The notes beneath the pieces were generated by a model. It worked only from the letters and a program-made list of their open reading frames with translations, did not search any database and was not told the DNA's origin. From the IMG/VR virus record IMGVR_UViG_3300048834_000273, positions 1 to 35,564 of that record: a DNA stretch of 35,564 nt; one strand, written 5' to 3'. This DNA comes from a virus. Position 1 is the stretch's first letter. Every line of letters begins with the position of its first letter. Made by a program: the position numbers and the translations under genes. Positions 17,827 through 31,294 of the stretch are shown here, in pieces.

Positions 17827-18597
17827 TCATCGGCGGCGCCGCTTCGCCTTCTTCGCTGGGCGGGCCCGGGCGACCATCTCGGCGGTGATCCGCTTCCCCG
17901 AGTGGCGTGCGTCGAGCAGCTCGAGCGCAGGCATCACGGCTTCGGTGGCGTGGAAGTCGCCGCACCACCGGCACACACCGAGCACCGGGTACCGATCCGA
18001 CCGGGGTTCACGGGCACCGACCCGGAGGCAGGACCGGCACCACATCTCGGTCGTGTCCGCGGCCAGGCCGACATCACGCTGCACGTTCGGGGTCGACGGT
18101 GCGCTCCCCCACTGCTCGATGATCTGGCCGAGCTCGACCACGACCTGGTGCAGGGCTTCGGCGTCGCGCCACTGCACCGACCGGCCGAGGCCGTGGTCGA
18201 TCATCACCCGCACTTCGAGGTGGCAGCGGATCAGCAGACGACGACCCGACAGGGTCGGGGCCAGGTGACGGCCGCCGGCCGCCGTCACGCACCGGGTCAC
18301 CGCGGTGTGGACCCGGGCGGGCAGGGCGTCGAGCCGGTCGAGGATCTGCTGCTCCCGTGGCACCCCGGTCTCGATCACCCGCTCCACCACTGACGCCGAG
18401 GCGTGCGGGCCGGAGTGCACGAACCCGCCACCACCAGACGGCACACCCGTCCCGGACGCAGCACCCGACATCCCGGGGAGTGCGTCGAGCAGGATGGCGC
18501 GGACATCGTCCCAGCGGGCGATCGCATCGAGGAGGACGTGCTCAACCTCGACCAGGACAGCGGACGGGGTGGTCGGCAGACGACGGGTGATGGTCAT
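17827..18597 (-). CDS. Zinc-binding protein of unknown function, last gene of early operon
   Basis: A 256-residue protein from ATG 18597, overlapping the upstream stop. Residues 1-150 are largely helical, with a Gly-rich loop at about 43-60. A CRSC / CRWC pair of CxxC motifs (near residues 187-213) forms a likely zinc knuckle, and the C-terminus is a very basic tail (ARPAKKAKRRRR). Basic tail plus zinc site suggest nucleic-acid binding. Its place beside the HNH/replication-like gene suggests a partner in replication or late switching. No family recognised. Confidence 0.6.
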   Translation of the reverse strand: MTITRRLPTTPSAVLVEVEHVLLDAIARWDDVRAILLDALPGMSGAASGTGVPSGGGGFVHSGPHASASVVERVIETGVPREQQILDRLDALPARVHTAVTRCVTAAGGRHLAPTLSGRRLLIRCHLEVRVMIDHGLGRSVQWRDAEALHQVVVELGQIIEQWGSAPSTPNVQRDVGLAADTTEMWCRSCLRVGAREPRSDRYPVLGVCRWCGDFHATEAVMPALELLDARHSGKRITAEMVARARPAKKAKRRRR

Positions 18598-19643
18598 GCG
18601 ATGTGCCCCCCTGGGAAGTGATGGTCGTCGTGCGGAGGGACTGTCTGCGGCAGCAGGTGCTCACCTTGGCGAGACTCGACCTGACCAGAGACCTGACCAG
18701 AGACCTGACCAGAGACCTGACCAGAGACCTGACCAGGACCACCACCAGGACCACCACCAGACCAGGACCTGTCCCTGGTCCGTCCCGAGTCGTGCGCGTC
18801 GCGGGCGCGTGTCGCGCTCGCGCGTGAGGGAGCGCTGGTCGGTGGTGTGGTCGGTGGTACCACCGCAGGACCAGCGGTGGTACCACGCGTGGTACCACCG
18901 TGGTCGGTGCTGGTGTGGTCCTGGTCGGTGGTCGCGGCCTGGTCTTCGGTCGCCCATGACTCGTCGCCAGAGGTGTCCGCTGCGCCGAGGCGGCGGATGC
19001 GCGGCTCAGGGAGCAGGCTCATCCCTGCTTCCTCTGGGGTGCGCTTGTTCTTGAACTGGTTGCACTCCTGGCAGCAGATGACGAGGTTCTCGAGTGTGTT
19101 CGGTCCGTTGGGGTCGAGGTGGTCGATGGTGAGCTTGTCGGGTGAGCGGGTGTCCTTCTCCTTCTTGCGGGACACTCTGCGGCCGCCACAGCGGTCGTAG
19201 CGGCATCGGTGGCCGTCGCGGCGGATCAGCTGAGCGACGAGGAAGTCGTCGCCGAGCAGGTCCTTCTTCCGGGTGTTCTTGGCGCGTCGCTCCTTGACGA
19301 CGTCGGCCTTCTCCCCGTAGCCGTCCCAGAAGTCGTGCTGGCGGTAGCAGCCTGCGGGAACCCCGCCGGTGGTGACCGGGCACTTCTCCGAGGTGCATGT
19401 GTCGCCGGGCTGGTGCCACTCGCCCGCTGCGATGAGGGCGTTGACGGCCTTCTTCGTCGCTGCCGGTGACCGGTGGAACGAGAACGCTGCGAGCGCGGGG
19501 AGCATGTGCTGCTCGACGAGGCCGTCGCTGAGCTGTCGGTTGGCGTGCATGATGCCGTTCAGGCGGAGCAGGTAGGCGTCGGCGCCGAGCGCGAGCAGGC
19601 GAGGGTTGCCGAACTCTTCGTCGCGGAGTTGGGTGATCGTCAT
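18594..19643 (-). CDS. HNH-domain protein, probable replication initiator with embedded origin
   Basis: The product has 349 residues from ATG 19643. Residues 10-80 are a helical region resembling the N-terminal winged-helix-like domain of actinophage replication proteins (LLRLNGIMHANRQLSDGLVE). Residues 100-210 form an HNH/McrA-like nuclease domain with Cys147/Cys152, LTIDHLDPNGPNTLENLVIC (His175) and CQECN (Cys191/194, Asn195). From about 235 on it is low-complexity and includes five SGQV repeats, plus Thr/Pro-rich stretches. That DNA also holds iteron-like repeats and a palindrome, as lambda's origin lies inside its O gene. A replication role is inferred; a plain HNH homing-type nuclease is the alternative. 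Confidence 0.65.
   Translation of the reverse strand: MTITQLRDEEFGNPRLLALGADAYLLRLNGIMHANRQLSDGLVEQHMLPALAAFSFHRSPAATKKAVNALIAAGEWHQPGDTCTSEKCPVTTGGVPAGCYRQHDFWDGYGEKADVVKERRAKNTRKKDLLGDDFLVAQLIRRDGHRCRYDRCGGRRVSRKKEKDTRSPDKLTIDHLDPNGPNTLENLVICCQECNQFKNKRTPEEAGMSLLPEPRIRRLGAADTSGDESWATEDQAATTDQDHTSTDHGGTTRGTTAGPAVVPPTTPPTSAPSRASATRARDAHDSGRTRDRSWSGGGPGGGPGQVSGQVSGQVSGQVSGQVESRQGEHLLPQTVPPHDDHHFPGGHIA
18678..18737. repeat. Five tandem 12-bp repeats (iteron-like)
   Basis: The unit gacctgaccaga is repeated four times exactly, with a fifth copy at 18726-18737 differing in its last base. It encodes S-G-Q-V on the minus strand. Two related accaccaccag(g/a) units follow to 18761. Tandem identical units in a replication-protein gene are a typical initiator binding array. 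Confidence 0.85.
18836..18932. repeat. Palindromes and direct repeats, candidate replication origin
   Basis: A perfect 12-bp palindrome lies at 18853-18864 (ggtggtaccacc) and a perfect 26-bp palindrome at 18875-18900 contains two more GGTACC cores. The 11-mer tggtcggtggt occurs exactly at 18836, 18848 and 18922, with a variant at 18901. Together with the 12-bp array at 18678-18737 they make a dense repeat cluster of about 255 bp with the features of an origin. Confidence 0.6.
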
Positions 19644-20398
19644 TCGTCGAGCTCCACGTATGGGGGGAACGGCAGGACGTGCACGTCTTCGGGTGGTGGG
19701 ATCTGCTCGCCGTCGTTGAGCGCCCTGAACGGTGCGTACGGGTATCGGGGGCGCGGTTCGTCGCCGGCGGCGATGCGACGGGCGTCCTCGACGTCGATCG
19801 GGAACTCGCGGGACCGTCTCGGGATCTCGCACTTCGCGTCGAGGTGGTAGGCGTACCAGCGGTCGGTGGCGCCCTCGGCGTACAGCTTGGAGAAGAACGC
19901 GTGGGCTTCTTCCCAGACGGCCGAGTAGCAAGGGCGGAGGATCGGGATACACGGGTCCTGAGCCTTCCGGTTGGCCATGTCGGCCATCGTCGGGAGCGGG
20001 CCCTCGAGGCCGCTGCAGCGCCTCATGTTGCACTTGGGGGTGCGTCGGTGGAGTTCGAAGTCGCGGAGCACGACGAAGCCGACGGCGACGTCTCGGCCGC
20101 ACTTGCGGCACGCGAACGGGCTGGATGACGGGACCGCTGCGGCGTCCGGATTGTGGGCCAGGTTGTAGCGGGGTCGCTCGGCGAGGATCACCGACCGCTC
20201 GTGACGTTCCGCCTCGACTCGGGTGACCTCGCCGAGATGCTCGACTTCCATCCGGGCGACGAACGGCCACCACGGCTTCGCGCGGCGATGCTCGGATGCT
20301 CGGACGGCGGCGTGGAGGGAGATCCCGACGTACAGGAGTGCGTCGTCGGCGTCGTAGAAGCGGTAGAGGTCCATGTTCGACATGGTCGCGTTGCTCAC
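19640..20398 (-). CDS. GIY-YIG nuclease-domain protein with zinc-binding middle
   Basis: The product has 252 residues. GTG 20398 is chosen for its GTGA overlap with the WhiB gene; ATG 20383 is an alternative. The GIY-YIG fold is visible: LYRF at 11-14, LLYVGISLHAAVRASEH at 21-37 with the usual Arg and His, and a Glu-containing helix near 65-80. A CRKCGRDVAV ... CNMRRC cysteine cluster lies near residues 102-133. The C-terminal 100 residues are Pro/Arg-rich, unknown. It may act in recombination, DNA processing or defence against rival DNA. It lies just before the HNH/replication gene. Confidence 0.75.
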   Translation of the reverse strand: MSNATMSNMDLYRFYDADDALLYVGISLHAAVRASEHRRAKPWWPFVARMEVEHLGEVTRVEAERHERSVILAERPRYNLAHNPDAAAVPSSSPFACRKCGRDVAVGFVVLRDFELHRRTPKCNMRRCSGLEGPLPTMADMANRKAQDPCIPILRPCYSAVWEEAHAFFSKLYAEGATDRWYAYHLDAKCEIPRRSREFPIDVEDARRIAAGDEPRPRYPYAPFRALNDGEQIPPPEDVHVLPFPPYVELDE

Positions 20399-28571: not shown

Positions 28572-28792
28572 GATGATCCTCCTGAGATCGGTGACGAGCT
28601 GGCGGTGGTGGCGTTGTGCGCTGCGAACGCCTGGGCGGCCTGTGCTGCCCGGGCGTACGCCTCGCTGCGAGGGCGGTCGGCGTGGCGGTGGAACCGGTAG
28701 ATGAACCGGACGTCGCCGCGCTGTTGCGGGGTGAGCGCAGGCATCCAGCGGCGCAACGCCTGGGACAGCAGGTGGTCGAGCGGGTCACGCAT
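28568..28792 (-). CDS. Hypothetical early protein
   Basis: A 74-residue protein from ATG 28792, overlapping the GIY-YIG gene end by 8 bp. It is a basic helical protein (DHLLSQALRRWMPALTPQQR, RSEAYARAAQAAQAFAAHNA) with a Ser/Gly-rich end. Nucleic acid contact is possible; no family recognised. Confidence 0.55.
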   Translation of the reverse strand: MRDPLDHLLSQALRRWMPALTPQQRGDVRFIYRFHRHADRPRSEAYARAAQAAQAFAAHNATTASSSPISGGSS

Positions 28793-29309
28793 CGCCGGGG
28801 TCCTCGGTGTAGGCGTCTCCGAACAGGGTCAGGCCCTTGGCGCGCATCTCCCGGGCGAGCCACTCGGCGCCGTCGCACGCAGCGAACCTGGCCGAGGCCT
28901 CCTGTGCCGCGTCTCGGCGTTCGTCGACCGCCCAGCGCTCGAAGTCGTCAGCGGTCGCAGCGGCGAGACACACGCGCTCGGTGCCGATCGAGAGGGGGCG
29001 ATCAGCCACGGCGCCCACCTCGTCGCGGGCCGGCCACCGTCGCGCTGCCGCGACTCGTCGCAGCAGGAGCGATGCGCTGACGTGGCCCGCGTGCTGCACG
29101 TTGGCCGGTGGCCGCAGTGCTGCGATGGTGTTTCGCTCCGCACGTAGCGCCGCCGTCCGGTCGGTGAAGCTGCCCAGCACGTCGAGCGCATCCGTGGGGG
29201 CTGCGATGCCGGTCTGACGGTGATCCGCCAAGCGTGCCGCCAGGTCGTGTGTCACCCCGATGTAGCGGATCTGGCCGCCGCGGCGGATCGCGTAGACGTG
29301 GTGCGTCAC
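28785..29309 (-). CDS. GIY-YIG nuclease-domain protein
   Basis: A 174-residue protein from GTG 29309 (GTGA overlap with the excisionase-like gene). The N-terminus has the GIY-YIG motifs HVYAIRR (4-10) and QIRYIGVTHDLAARLADHR (13-31), including the usual Arg and His. The C-terminal 100 residues are helical (DDFERWAVDERRDAAQEASA) and unknown. It is the second gene of the early operon, so it is expressed immediately; a role in degrading competing DNA or in recombination is possible. Confidence 0.78.
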   Translation of the reverse strand: MTHHVYAIRRGGQIRYIGVTHDLAARLADHRQTGIAAPTDALDVLGSFTDRTAALRAERNTIAALRPPANVQHAGHVSASLLLRRVAAARRWPARDEVGAVADRPLSIGTERVCLAAATADDFERWAVDERRDAAQEASARFAACDGAEWLAREMRAKGLTLFGDAYTEDPGDA

Positions 29310-29485
29310 GCTGCGGCCTCGCTGCGGAGGCGCTCGACGTCGGCGACGTGCCACCAGCAGGCGCCCCGCTTGCCGGGGGCCTTGATGGCGGGCTGGATGC
29401 TGTGGGCGGCGACGAGCCGGTGGAACCGTGAGACGGTGACCCCCAGCGCTTCGGCCGCTTCCCGAGTGGTAAGCGTTTTCGTCAC
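29306..29485 (-). CDS. Excisionase / Cro-like HTH protein
   Basis: A 59-residue protein from GTG 29485. The HTH_17 (MerR/Xis-type) pattern is clear: LTTREAAEALGVTVSRFHRL, then KRGACWWHVADVERLR as the wing. Proteins of this type are excisionases or Cro-like regulators. It is the first gene of the early leftward operon, divergent from the repressor, and its promoter overlaps an operator-like repeat. There is no ribosome site; the -10 box ends 7 bases before the GTG, so the mRNA is probably leaderless. Confidence 0.8.
   Translation of the reverse strand: MTKTLTTREAAEALGVTVSRFHRLVAAHSIQPAIKAPGKRGACWWHVADVERLRSEAAA
29471..29482. promoter_or_regulatory. Operator-like repeat 1
   Basis: Reads aagcgttttcgt, sharing the core aa(g/a)cgttt(c/t)cg with two other copies nearby. 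It lies within codons 2-5 of the excisionase-like gene, directly downstream of the leftward promoter. Confidence 0.55.
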
Positions 29486-29492
29486 GGAAAGC

Positions 29493-29521
29493 AGTAGACA
29501 CCACGCGGGCGACGGTGTCAA
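29493..29521 (-). promoter_or_regulatory. Leftward early promoter (leaderless)
   Basis: On the minus strand TTGACA (29521-29516) is separated by 17 bases from TCTACT (29498-29493); the GTG of the excisionase-like gene starts 7 bases after the -10. The -35 box is a perfect consensus. The second operator copy overlaps it. It should drive the whole early operon to 17827. Confidence 0.8.
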
Positions 29522-29532
29522 GCGTTTCCGAG
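29520..29532. promoter_or_regulatory. Operator-like repeat 2
   Basis: Reads aagcgtttccgag; overlaps the -35 region of the leftward promoter, where a bound repressor would block RNA polymerase. Confidence 0.6.
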
Positions 29533-29551
29533 AATCACCCGGGCATCCCTC

Positions 29552-29581
29552 TTGCTAAACGTTTCCGAGTGCGCGCACGAT
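29552..29581 (+). promoter_or_regulatory. Repressor-gene promoter (weak, leaderless)
   Basis: TTGCTA (29552-29557), an 18-base spacer and CACGAT (29576-29581) precede the repressor ATG (29588) by six bases. No ribosome site is visible. Operator copy 3 lies within the spacer, suggesting autoregulation. Confidence 0.5.
29557..29569. promoter_or_regulatory. Operator-like repeat 3
   Basis: Reads aaacgtttccgag; same orientation as copies 1 and 2, with start-to-start spacings of 49 and 37 bp. It sits inside the repressor promoter. Confidence 0.55.
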
Positions 29582-29587
29582 TCCGCA

Positions 29588-29926
29588 ATGGAAGCAGCGC
29601 ACACCGCCCTCATCCCCGTCTGGACGCTCGGCGATCGACTCCGCAAGGCCCGCGAGGTAGCCGGGATGGACGCCGAGATCATGGCCCAGCACGTCGGCGT
29701 CACCGACCGCACGATTCGCAACTACGAGACGGACACCACCCCGGTGAAGCGGTCCGTCATCCTCGGCTACTCGATGGCGACCGGCGTCCCGGTCGAGTGG
29801 ATCGAAACCGGCGTCACGCCGCCGAGCGACCCGACCCTGGTTACCCGCTGGTATGCCGTCTGCTCTGGCAGTCCGCCCGACCGGAAGACCGTCCTGAGAC
29901 TCGCTCAAGCCCCGGTCGCCGCGTGA
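29588..29926 (+). CDS. Phage immunity repressor (HTH_XRE), degron-like C-terminus
   Basis: A 112-residue protein from ATG 29588. Residues 14-50 are an XRE-type HTH (LGDRLRKAREVAGMDAEIMA, then QHVGVTDRTIRNYETD). The rest is a tail of about 50 residues ending Gln-Ala-Pro-Val-Ala-Ala, similar to ssrA-type ClpX degrons. It has no LexA-like peptidase domain. The integrase gene follows 13 bp downstream. In mycobacteriophages with integration-dependent immunity, attP lies in the repressor's 3' end, and integration removes such a tag to yield a stable, shorter repressor. That mechanism is inferred here; a standard small repressor is the alternative. Confidence 0.8.
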   Translation: MEAAHTALIPVWTLGDRLRKAREVAGMDAEIMAQHVGVTDRTIRNYETDTTPVKRSVILGYSMATGVPVEWIETGVTPPSDPTLVTRWYAVCSGSPPDRKTVLRLAQAPVAA

Positions 29927-29939
29927 CGATTGTTGCGCC

Positions 29940-30713
29940 ATGCACACGATCAATGCCTTCCTCAGCTACCAATCGTTGCGTGGGTTCTCGGCCCGCACGA
30001 TCGCCCGGCGCCGCTGGACCCTGCGGGCCGTCTGCATCGAGACCGGCCGGGATCTCGACCGGCTGCGCAGCGTCGATGTCGAGGTGTTCCTCGCCCGACG
30101 GCCGGCGGCCGAGTCCCGGCGGGCGCTGCTCGGCGATCTGCGTGCGTACTACCGGTGGGCGCTCCCCCGCGGGTTCGCCCACCACGACCCGACGGTGCTG
30201 TTCGACGCCCCGCGTGTCCCGCGTCGCGATCCGCGGCCGTTGACCGGCACCGAGATCCGCCTCCTCCTCGACGGTGCGCCACCACGCACCCGTCGCGCCG
30301 TCGCCCTGGGCGCCTATGCAGGGCTGCGGGCCGGCGAGATCGGGCGCATCACCGCCACCGACGTCCGAGGCGGCGTCGTGCACGTCCGGGGCGGCAAGGG
30401 AGGCAAGGACCGGACCGTCCCGTTGCACCCGGCGCTCGAGGTCGAGTGCCGAGGCTGCGTCGGTCTGCTCGTCGGCCTCGCCCCTGACGGCGTGTCGGCC
30501 CTGATCCGTGACCGGATGCGCGCCGTCGAGCTCGACGGCCATCGCTGCCACGACCTGCGGGCCACGTTCGCCACCGAGGCGGTCAGGGTGGCGCCGATCC
30601 CGACCGTCGCCCGCTGGCTCGGTCACGCCAACTGGTCGACGACGCAGCGCTACGTGATGGTCGACCCCGGTGACGCCGAGCAGGTCGCGGCCATGTTCCC
30701 GATGGCGGCCTGA
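29940..30713 (+). CDS. int: Tyrosine integrase
   Basis: The product has 257 residues from ATG 29940, with no clear ribosome site. The catalytic set of tyrosine recombinases is complete: R130 (YAGLRAGEI), K153 region (GGKGGKDR), H204-x-x-R207 (CHDLRATF), H229 (WLGHANW) and nucleophile Y238 (TTQRYV). An N-terminal SAM-like core-binding domain (residues 1-90) is present, with no extra arm-binding domain, so it is a compact integrase. It ends Pro-Met-Ala-Ala, a degron-like tail as in the repressor. It would join attP and attB. Confidence 0.95.
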   Translation: MHTINAFLSYQSLRGFSARTIARRRWTLRAVCIETGRDLDRLRSVDVEVFLARRPAAESRRALLGDLRAYYRWALPRGFAHHDPTVLFDAPRVPRRDPRPLTGTEIRLLLDGAPPRTRRAVALGAYAGLRAGEIGRITATDVRGGVVHVRGGKGGKDRTVPLHPALEVECRGCVGLLVGLAPDGVSALIRDRMRAVELDGHRCHDLRATFATEAVRVAPIPTVARWLGHANWSTTQRYVMVDPGDAEQVAAMFPMAA

Positions 30714-30748: not shown

Positions 30749-31294
30749 ATGAGCAGTGCGCCGGGGTGGCATCCGGATCCGTGGGACCCGCAGAGCGTGC
30801 GCTGGTGGGACGGCCAGCAGTGGACCGGGCACACCCGGCCCGGTGTCGCTCCGCCGGTCCCCCGTTCGGGGACGCCACCGCCGGGCGTGGTGGGGCCACA
30901 GATCCGGTTCACGCCTACCGCGGCGCAGCCGATCCCCACACCGCGGCGAACGTCGCCGTGGCTCGGGCTGGTGGTCGTGCTCTTCCTCGCCGGCGGCTGC
31001 GGGGCGCTGATCGCCGCCGGGGCTGCCACCGACGACGAGCGGTCCACCGAGCCGGCTGCCGCTGACCAGTCGAGCCGTGGCAGCGGTGAGGTCGACATGG
31101 AGACGGTGGCCGTGATGGCAGCCGCGTTCGCTTGGGACGAGATGACCACCGAGGACCGGGCGCTCGCCTGCGAAGGGCTCGACACGTTCGGCCGCGACTT
31201 CGTGTACGAGCAGCTGCTCGACGGCGCAGACGGCGACGAGAACGGGCCCGTGTTCGCTGCGGCCCTGCTCGACCTGCTCGAGGCCGAGTGCTGA
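30749..31294 (+). CDS. DUF2510-type membrane protein (possible prophage-expressed gene)
   Basis: A 181-residue protein from ATG 30749. Residues 4-30 match the DUF2510 pattern (PGWHPDPWDPQSVRWWDGQQ WTGHT, split here), which is usual for actinobacterial membrane proteins. A Pro-rich linker (31-70), one transmembrane helix (about 71-93, WLGLVVVLFLAGGCGALI) and an acidic extracellular or cytoplasmic domain with DEMTTEDRALACEGLD follow. It is transcribed with repressor and integrase, away from lytic genes, so it is likely expressed from the prophage. A role such as superinfection exclusion is possible but not shown. Confidence 0.7.
   Translation: MSSAPGWHPDPWDPQSVRWWDGQQWTGHTRPGVAPPVPRSGTPPPGVVGPQIRFTPTAAQPIPTPRRTSPWLGLVVVLFLAGGCGALIAAGAATDDERSTEPAAADQSSRGSGEVDMETVAVMAAAFAWDEMTTEDRALACEGLDTFGRDFVYEQLLDGADGDENGPVFAAALLDLLEAEC

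What the first reader, a model, noticed from the sequence alone, without database searches (positions are those of the whole stretch)
29588..30713. Integration-dependent immunity cassette: repressor and integrase both end in Ala-Ala
Seen: a small HTH repressor gene is followed after 13 bp by a compact tyrosine integrase. The proteins end in PVAA and PMAA. Known: some mycobacteriophages (BPs and Brujita type) put attP inside the 3' end of the repressor gene. There, integration removes an ssrA-like tag to make a stable repressor, and the integrase is also tagged. Inference: this phage uses the same switch, outside the mycolate hosts where it is described. A weak inverted pair (TGCC/GGCA, 29854-29870) lies in the predicted attP region.
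Basis: partly seen in the sequence, partly recalled or inferred. Interest (0 to 1): 0.8.

Follow-up and report, generated by a model that had tools for sequence, protein, structure and literature searches.

The report
Integration-activated repressor switch, non-tRNA site
This bacterial virus most likely makes a self-destructing repressor that becomes stable only after the virus inserts itself into the host chromosome; insertion cuts the gene and the first host base turns a tyrosine codon into a stop, and related viruses seem to insert at a short palindrome that looks like a switch site for host fat-metabolism genes rather than at a tRNA gene.

Summary
A 112-aa HTH repressor (29588-29926, ends PVAA) is followed after 13 bp by a catalytically complete 257-aa tyrosine integrase (29940-30713, ends PMAA). 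The repressor is a homologue of the BPs-type repressors. Across relatives, viral-form repressors end in A in 21/25 cases and AA in 16/25; lysogen-form repressors in 0/42 (background AA 1.5%). The repressor tail carries no tRNA segment. Its likely attP core is TAC-CCGCTG-GTA (29842-29853), read so that TA starts a TAT (Tyr89) codon, not the TGCC/GGCA pair proposed. The same TAC-N6-GTA core, in the same frame, lies exactly at the mapped junctions of five related lysogens (one Amycolatopsis, one metagenomic provirus, three M. abscessus prophages). There the first host base changes TAT to a stop, seen directly in the two lysogens with host sequence. The predicted lysogen repressor here has 88 residues, without the 24-residue tail. 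Non-tRNA sites and host-made stop codons are already published for M. abscessus. The shared core rule looks new to me, as does the likelihood that the host site is a fatty-acid-regulon operator palindrome. No host or lysogen of this phage was found, and tag function is untested.

The parts
29588..29926 (+). viral-form immunity repressor, 112 aa, BPs gp33 family (HTH_31; PHROG_2328), C-terminus ...APVAA
29842..29853 (+). predicted attP core TAC-CCGCTG-GTA (inverted repeat TAC/GTA around 6 bp), within the only TTACYNNNNRGTAT of the window (29841-29854)
   Evidence: same core at five mapped lysogen junctions
29852..29854 (+). TAT codon (Tyr89) predicted to become TAA or TAG when a host A or G replaces its third base on integration
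29852..29923 (+). 24-residue tail YAVCSGSPPDRKTVLRLAQAPVAA predicted to be removed by integration; ends in a putative ssrA-like -VAA degradation signal
   Evidence: by analogy with BPs gp33 (PMC4557955)
29940..30713 (+). tyrosine integrase, 257 aa, no N-terminal arm-binding domain apparent, catalytic R/K/H/R/H/Y intact, C-terminus ...PMAA
29306..29485 (-). small HTH_17 (excisionase/Cro-like) gene read divergently from the repressor
29471..29569 (.). three direct repeats AARCGTTTYCG (29471, 29520, 29557), found nowhere else in the window: candidate operators of the repressor/early promoter

Best explanation
This is an integration-dependent immunity cassette of an actinobacterial temperate phage, of the non-tRNA type. 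On infection the repressor is made with a C-terminal tail ending in -VAA and is presumably degraded; the integrase carries -MAA and is presumably short-lived too. If enough integrase survives, it recombines attP (core TACCCGCTGGTA at 29842-29853, inside the repressor gene) with a short host palindrome TTAC-N6-GTAA. The phage base T after GTA is then replaced by the host base (A, or G), so the TAT codon of Tyr89 becomes a stop. The lysogen makes an 88-residue, untagged, stable repressor that binds the intergenic operators (29471-29569) and shuts off the early genes read leftward from about 29485. Excision restores the tagged form. Shown: the genes, the homology, the C-termini, the core motif and frame, and the same core with TAT-to-stop at lysogen junctions of related phages. 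Inferred: proteolysis, operator binding, the attB sequence and the host for this phage.
For: Family: the repressor matches Gordonia GRU3 and McGonagall, Mycobacterium Bipper and cluster G (BPs-type) repressors by tblastn and PHROG_2328 at 1e-19. These have the same layout of divergent HTH gene, repressor, integrase. C-termini: viral-form versus lysogen-form statistics; Fisher p about 1e-13 for ending in A. Core: among 22 cassettes without a tRNA segment, 10 tails have a perfect TAX-N6-X'TA (dinucleotide shuffles mean 0.43, maximum 4 of 2000 runs) and only at a spacer of 6; 14 have TA-N8-TA and all 14 are in the same codon frame. In the window the core is one of only two TA-N8-TA in 35.5 kb, and TTACYNNNNRGTAT occurs once, with 0.00 expected. 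Tyr is TAT in only 4 of 54 codons of the checked genes. Lysogens: in Amycolatopsis alkalitolerans the same assembly holds attP, attL and attR, sharing exactly TACCGGGCGGTA, and the attR repressor ends ...EPTGR-TAA. Metagenomic provirus G438 has TACTGGCCGGTA at both ends; its repressor ends ...EATGR-TAA and the orphaned tail at the other end reads ATGRYLANMQVRGGLVTAKVAA*. The three M. abscessus prophages MabN, MabO and MabC, checked after the motif was fixed, have cores ending TACTCACGAGTA, TACTCCAGAGTA and TACTCGAAAGTA (TATTCGAAAGTA on the repressor side), each with a TAT codon in attP in the same frame.
Against: No lysogen, host or attB of this phage was found. The closest repressor relative (L231, 51% identical; integrase 39%) ends PLAA but lacks the perfect inverted core, and 8 of 22 tRNA-less tails show no TA-N8-TA at all. 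The integrases of the mapped lysogens are only distantly related to this one (about 29% for the Amycolatopsis phage). Proteolysis of the -AA forms was not and cannot be tested here. The published MabC/MabN/MabO repressors lack ssrA-like tags (PMC8092301), so core and tag need not go together. An excisionase-like gene is present, whereas the published systems are said to lack an evident RDF (PMC9262239).
Confidence: 0.83

Rival explanations
1. Ordinary temperate cassette: the repressor and integrase happen to end in Ala-Ala, attP lies outside the repressor gene, and the full-length repressor gives immunity as in lambda-like phages. Arthrobacter phage Galaxy has such a look-alike layout with attP elsewhere.
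For: No lysogen of this phage is known. Galaxy: repressor-integrase organisation reminiscent of the system but attP five genes away and no tags (PMC5513430).
Against: The -AA ends on both proteins, the unique in-frame core in the tail, the family-wide statistics and the exact coincidence of this core with lysogen junctions.
Confidence: 0.08
2. Integration-dependent switch, but with attP at another place in the repressor tail, such as the TGCC/GGCA pair at 29854-29870 or a tRNA-like segment, giving a differently truncated repressor.
For: In many relatives the core is a tRNA 3' end at this position. The TGCC/GGCA pair exists next to the proposed core.
Against: No tRNA segment is recognisable; 396 actinobacterial genomes give only scattered noise with 29800-29945. 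The TGCC/GGCA pair has a 9-bp spacer, unlike all mapped cores, and is not shared by relatives.
Confidence: 0.07
3. The repressor is simply an unstable, tagged protein and integration does not change it; the in-frame TAC-N6-GTA is a protein motif (T-x-W/R/Q-Y) of the repressor C-terminus.
For: The motif encodes a similar T-x-x-Y peptide in several relatives.
Against: The codon ends are rare ones (TAT, NNT) in GC-rich genomes; the inverted-repeat constraint is at DNA level with a fixed 6-bp spacer; and in lysogens the recombination boundary falls exactly there.
Confidence: 0.02

Closest known systems
BPs / Brujita / Charlie-type integration-dependent immunity (mycobacteriophage clusters G, N, P)
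   Same: Homologous repressor, repressor followed by a Y-integrase, divergent HTH gene, attP inside the repressor gene, -AA-type C-termini, host base creates the stop codon (PMC4557955, PMC9262239)
   Different: BPs uses a 35-bp core in tRNA-Arg and a Cys codon turned into TGA; here the core is a 12-bp inverted repeat with no tRNA sequence and a Tyr codon turned into TAA/TAG
M. abscessus prophages MabC, MabN, MabO (attB-12, -13, -14; PMC8092301)
   Same: Integration-dependent, non-tRNA attB, short core, stop codon formed by the first bacterial base; I find the same TAC-N6-GTA|T core
   Different: Their repressors and integrases are reported without ssrA-like tags; repressors and integrases are only distantly related; different hosts and phages
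Gordonia phages GRU3, McGonagall, Jeanie, GMA5 (cluster CW)
   Same: Repressor and integrase homologues, same gene order in those opened, A/AA ends
   Different: 37-bp core in tRNA-Lys (PMC5559632)
Amycolatopsis alkalitolerans phage (L029/G006) and metagenomic provirus G438
   Same: tRNA-less repressor tail with TAC-N6-GTA core, -AA tail in viral form, TAA stop in lysogen
   Different: Unrelated at DNA level; not previously described as far as I could find

Membership tests
Integration-dependent immunity system (BPs type) | Repressor and integrase genes adjacent, same strand, with a divergent cro/xis-like gene | tested here: met
   13-bp gap; HTH_17 gene divergent at 29306-29485
Integration-dependent immunity system (BPs type) | Repressor homologous to the BPs-type repressors | tested here: met
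   tblastn 251 phage records, PHROG_2328 1e-19
Integration-dependent immunity system (BPs type) | attP located inside the repressor gene | tested here: inconclusive
   Predicted from the unique in-frame core and the same core at lysogen junctions of relatives; no lysogen of this phage
[quoted passage not shown]
   Sequence -PVAA present and enriched in viral forms; degradation not testable here
Integration-dependent immunity system (BPs type) | Integrase also carries a degradation signal | tested here: inconclusive
   -PMAA present; 8/25 viral-form integrases end AA
Integration-dependent immunity system (BPs type) | Integration shortens the repressor through a stop codon formed at the junction | tested here: inconclusive
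   Predicted here; seen in relatives
Integration-dependent immunity system (BPs type) | attB overlaps a host tRNA gene (stated for the mycobacteriophages in PMC9262239) | tested here: not met
   No tRNA segment in the tail; published exceptions exist in M. abscessus (PMC8092301), so this does not exclude membership
Integration-dependent immunity system (BPs type) | Integrase acts without arm-type sites (small attP) | not testable with these tools
   257 aa with no long N-terminal extension; no binding data
Integration-dependent immunity system (BPs type) | No recombination directionality factor | tested here: inconclusive
   A HTH_17/excisionase-like gene is present; its function is unknown

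The most novel reading that the evidence does not exclude
A class of integration-dependent phages inserts at palindromic operators of a conserved actinobacterial fatty-acid (TetR-type) regulon. Because the host palindrome is TTAC-N6-GTAA, its own symmetry supplies the A that turns the phage's GTA-T into a TAA stop. One short host operator thus serves as landing site, repressor-truncation signal and possibly a metabolic control point. This phage is predicted to use TTACCCGCTGGTAA.
Probability: 0.5. Interest if true: 0.82.

Novelty: new variant of a known kind. Interest (0 to 1): 0.62.

Why it matters
Published work could not find attP for about half of the tyrosine-integrase Gordonia phages, some with tagged repressors (PMC5559632); a 12-bp core would be missed by such similarity searches. 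The rule TAC-N6-GTA followed by T, in frame, inside a tagged repressor tail lets attP, the lysogen repressor and the expected host site be predicted from a phage or metagenome sequence alone, and makes the switch testable in a plasmid assay. If the host sites are fatty-acid operators, it also links the lysogeny decision to a host metabolic regulon and gives new, broadly conserved integration sites for actinobacterial genetics.

Tried and rejected
tRNA-end core: no T-arm in the tail, no recurrent segment in 396 genomes; rejected. TGCC/GGCA pair as core: spacer and position do not match mapped sites; rejected. Near-identical phages or lysogens of this phage: none in the phage records or in viral contigs searched with an 18-base pattern across the core. 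Repressor profile in two draws of about 400 Actinomycetota genomes: apart from the Amycolatopsis phage, no lysogen of the TAC-N6-GTA type among the hits opened. Host core as an exact 14-mer: 12 of 396 genomes, near chance overall, but one hit is 9 bp before an acyl-CoA dehydrogenase start and one beside a TetR gene. The motif does not explain Nyceirae, Doggs, Bowser and Schnabeltier, whose tails share a different segment.

Full report
Observation. The window is an IMG/VR virus record of 35,564 bp classed as linear. At 29588-29926 lies a 112-codon HTH gene ending PVAA, and 13 bp later a 257-codon tyrosine integrase ending PMAA. The integrase has all six catalytic residues. A small HTH_17 excisionase-like gene is read in the opposite direction (29306-29485). 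Between the two lie three copies of AARCGTTTYCG that occur nowhere else in the window (expected 0.19), the place where operators would be.

Family. The repressor is a homologue of the BPs-type repressors: 251 phage records by tblastn, among them cluster G mycobacteriophages (BPs relatives), Gordonia GRU3 and McGonagall, Brevibacterium AGM phages and Curtobacterium Barebow, and PHROG_2328 at 1e-19. The annotated relatives I opened mostly show the same order of divergent HTH gene, repressor, integrase.

Two forms of the repressor. I collected homologous repressors from genome and viral contigs and read their 3' ends. Where the integrase follows, the protein has a tail that ends in A in 21 of 25 non-redundant cases (AA in 16). 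Where the gene abuts a tRNA gene or the end of a provirus contig, the tail is gone and 0 of 42 end in A. The background rate of AA is 1.5%. In most lysogens the junction is a tRNA 3' end read antisense (...GLEPPTF*...DSNPEPAD*), in hosts such as Brachybacterium, Cellulomonas, Curtobacterium, Arthrobacter and Microbacterium. So the switch is widespread in Actinobacteria, not limited to mycolate hosts.

The window is of another type. Its tail (VTPPSDPTLVTRWYAVCSGSPPDRKTVLRLAQAPVAA) has no tRNA segment, and a search of 396 actinobacterial genomes gave only noise. Several other viral-form tails also lack one. Comparing them showed a common DNA pattern, an inverted TAX/X'TA around exactly 6 bp, always placed so that the last TA begins a TAT codon. 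In 22 such tails, 10 have the perfect form (shuffles: mean 0.43, maximum 4), no other spacer gives more than 2, and all 14 TA-N8-TA are in one frame. The motif was chosen after looking, so the independent tests below matter more than this count.

Independent tests. (a) Amycolatopsis alkalitolerans: one contig carries the intact viral-form cassette, and two other contigs end 78 bp inside the phage. They share with it exactly TACCGGGCGGTA. On the repressor side the next base is A, so the gene reads ...EPTGR-TAA. (b) Provirus G438 carries TACTGGCCGGTA at both ends. The repressor ends ...EATGR-TAA, and the detached piece at the other end encodes ...VTAKVAA*. (c) Three M. abscessus prophages with published non-tRNA attB sites were opened after the motif was fixed. 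Their cores end TACTCACGAGTA, TACTCCAGAGTA and TACTCGAAAGTA, and attP reads TAT next, in the same frame. For (c) the records hold the prophage only, so the host-made stop codon there rests on PMC8092301. A weaker case is contig G439, whose ends break exactly at the motif.

Prediction for the window. TTACYNNNNRGTAT occurs once in 35.5 kb, at 29841-29854 (expected 0.00), in the right gene and frame. TA-N8-TA occurs only twice in the whole window. Integration would turn TAT (Tyr89) into TAA or TAG and leave 88 residues, removing YAVCSGSPPDRKTVLRLAQAPVAA.

What the host site may be. The Amycolatopsis attB lies 18 bp before the start of a 3-hydroxyacyl-CoA dehydrogenase gene. TTACC-N4-GGTAA palindromes occur three to six times per genome in three actinobacterial genomes, with no hits for the reversed control. 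They mostly lie just before acyl-CoA dehydrogenase, thiolase, acyltransferase, electron-transfer flavoprotein and TetR genes. TTACT-N4-AGTAA in a Rhodococcus genome does the same (FabG-like, thiolase, TetR and acyl-CoA dehydrogenase genes, named from their sequences), although there the control also gave hits. M. abscessus attB-13 overlaps the start of a fatty acyl-CoA reductase gene (PMC8092301). The sequence predicted for this phage, TTACCCGCTGGTAA, occurs 9 bp before an acyl-CoA dehydrogenase gene in one genome and beside a TetR gene in another, but also in unrelated places, including 16S rRNA genes. I therefore hold the operator idea as plausible (about even odds) but unproven; no regulator-binding data were found.

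What is known. The switch itself, the tags on both proteins, the stop codon made by the host base, and the use of short non-tRNA sites in M. abscessus are published (PMC4557955, PMC9262239, PMC8092301). I found no report of the shared core rule or of the operator link, but subscription papers and supplements, including the original 2013 paper, were not readable. Gordonia phages with tagged repressors and no attP found are an acknowledged gap (PMC5559632, PMC4982277).

Limits. There is no host, no lysogen and no experiment for this phage. The mapped integrases are distant from this one. The closest repressor relative (L231) lacks the perfect core. Tag function is inferred.

Noticed in passing
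L318 (Nyceirae), L324 (Doggs), L327 (Bowser), L328 (Schnabeltier), repressor 3' ends: Four Gordonia phages with tagged repressors share a non-tRNA segment of about 45 bp (ACTCCAAWCGCARRCAAAT...GCGCAGGTCA-like) in the repressor tail; for Bowser and Schnabeltier the literature reports no attB found by BLASTn, and Nyceirae is among phages whose attP was not identified. This may be their attP core.
   Followed up: partly
L106, L107, L108, repressor 3' ends: Three diverged repressors share an identical stretch GGATCGACGTGTGCTTGTACTACGTGC and end in -VA/-AAA/-EAA; in L107 and L108 an integrase lies upstream on the other strand. Possibly another attP class.
   Followed up: no
L099 and L100, repressor tail: Perfect inverted repeat GATAACGACCGTTATC (TAA-N6-TTA) in the tail, with dif-like sequences upstream of the integrase.
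   Followed up: no
L104, L105, L098: Repressors ending -VAA/-SAA/-AAS with no tyrosine integrase found in the kilobases fetched downstream.
   Followed up: no
window 28785-29305 (-): GIY-YIG endonuclease-like ORF directly downstream of the excisionase-like gene.
   Followed up: no
window 30749-31294 (+): DUF2510 membrane-type protein gene directly after the integrase, a candidate lysogenic-conversion gene.
   Followed up: no
G006 contigs C51, C60, C22 (L308-L310): The Amycolatopsis isolate assembly holds attP, attL and attR together, which suggests the prophage is excising in culture.
   Followed up: partly
L387 and L391: TTACCCGCTGGTAA also occurs in a variable helix of some actinobacterial 16S rRNA genes, probably by chance.
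   Followed up: no
window 18594-20273 (-): Large ORF with an HNH-endonuclease match, on the strand of the structural genes and near the terminase.
   Followed up: no
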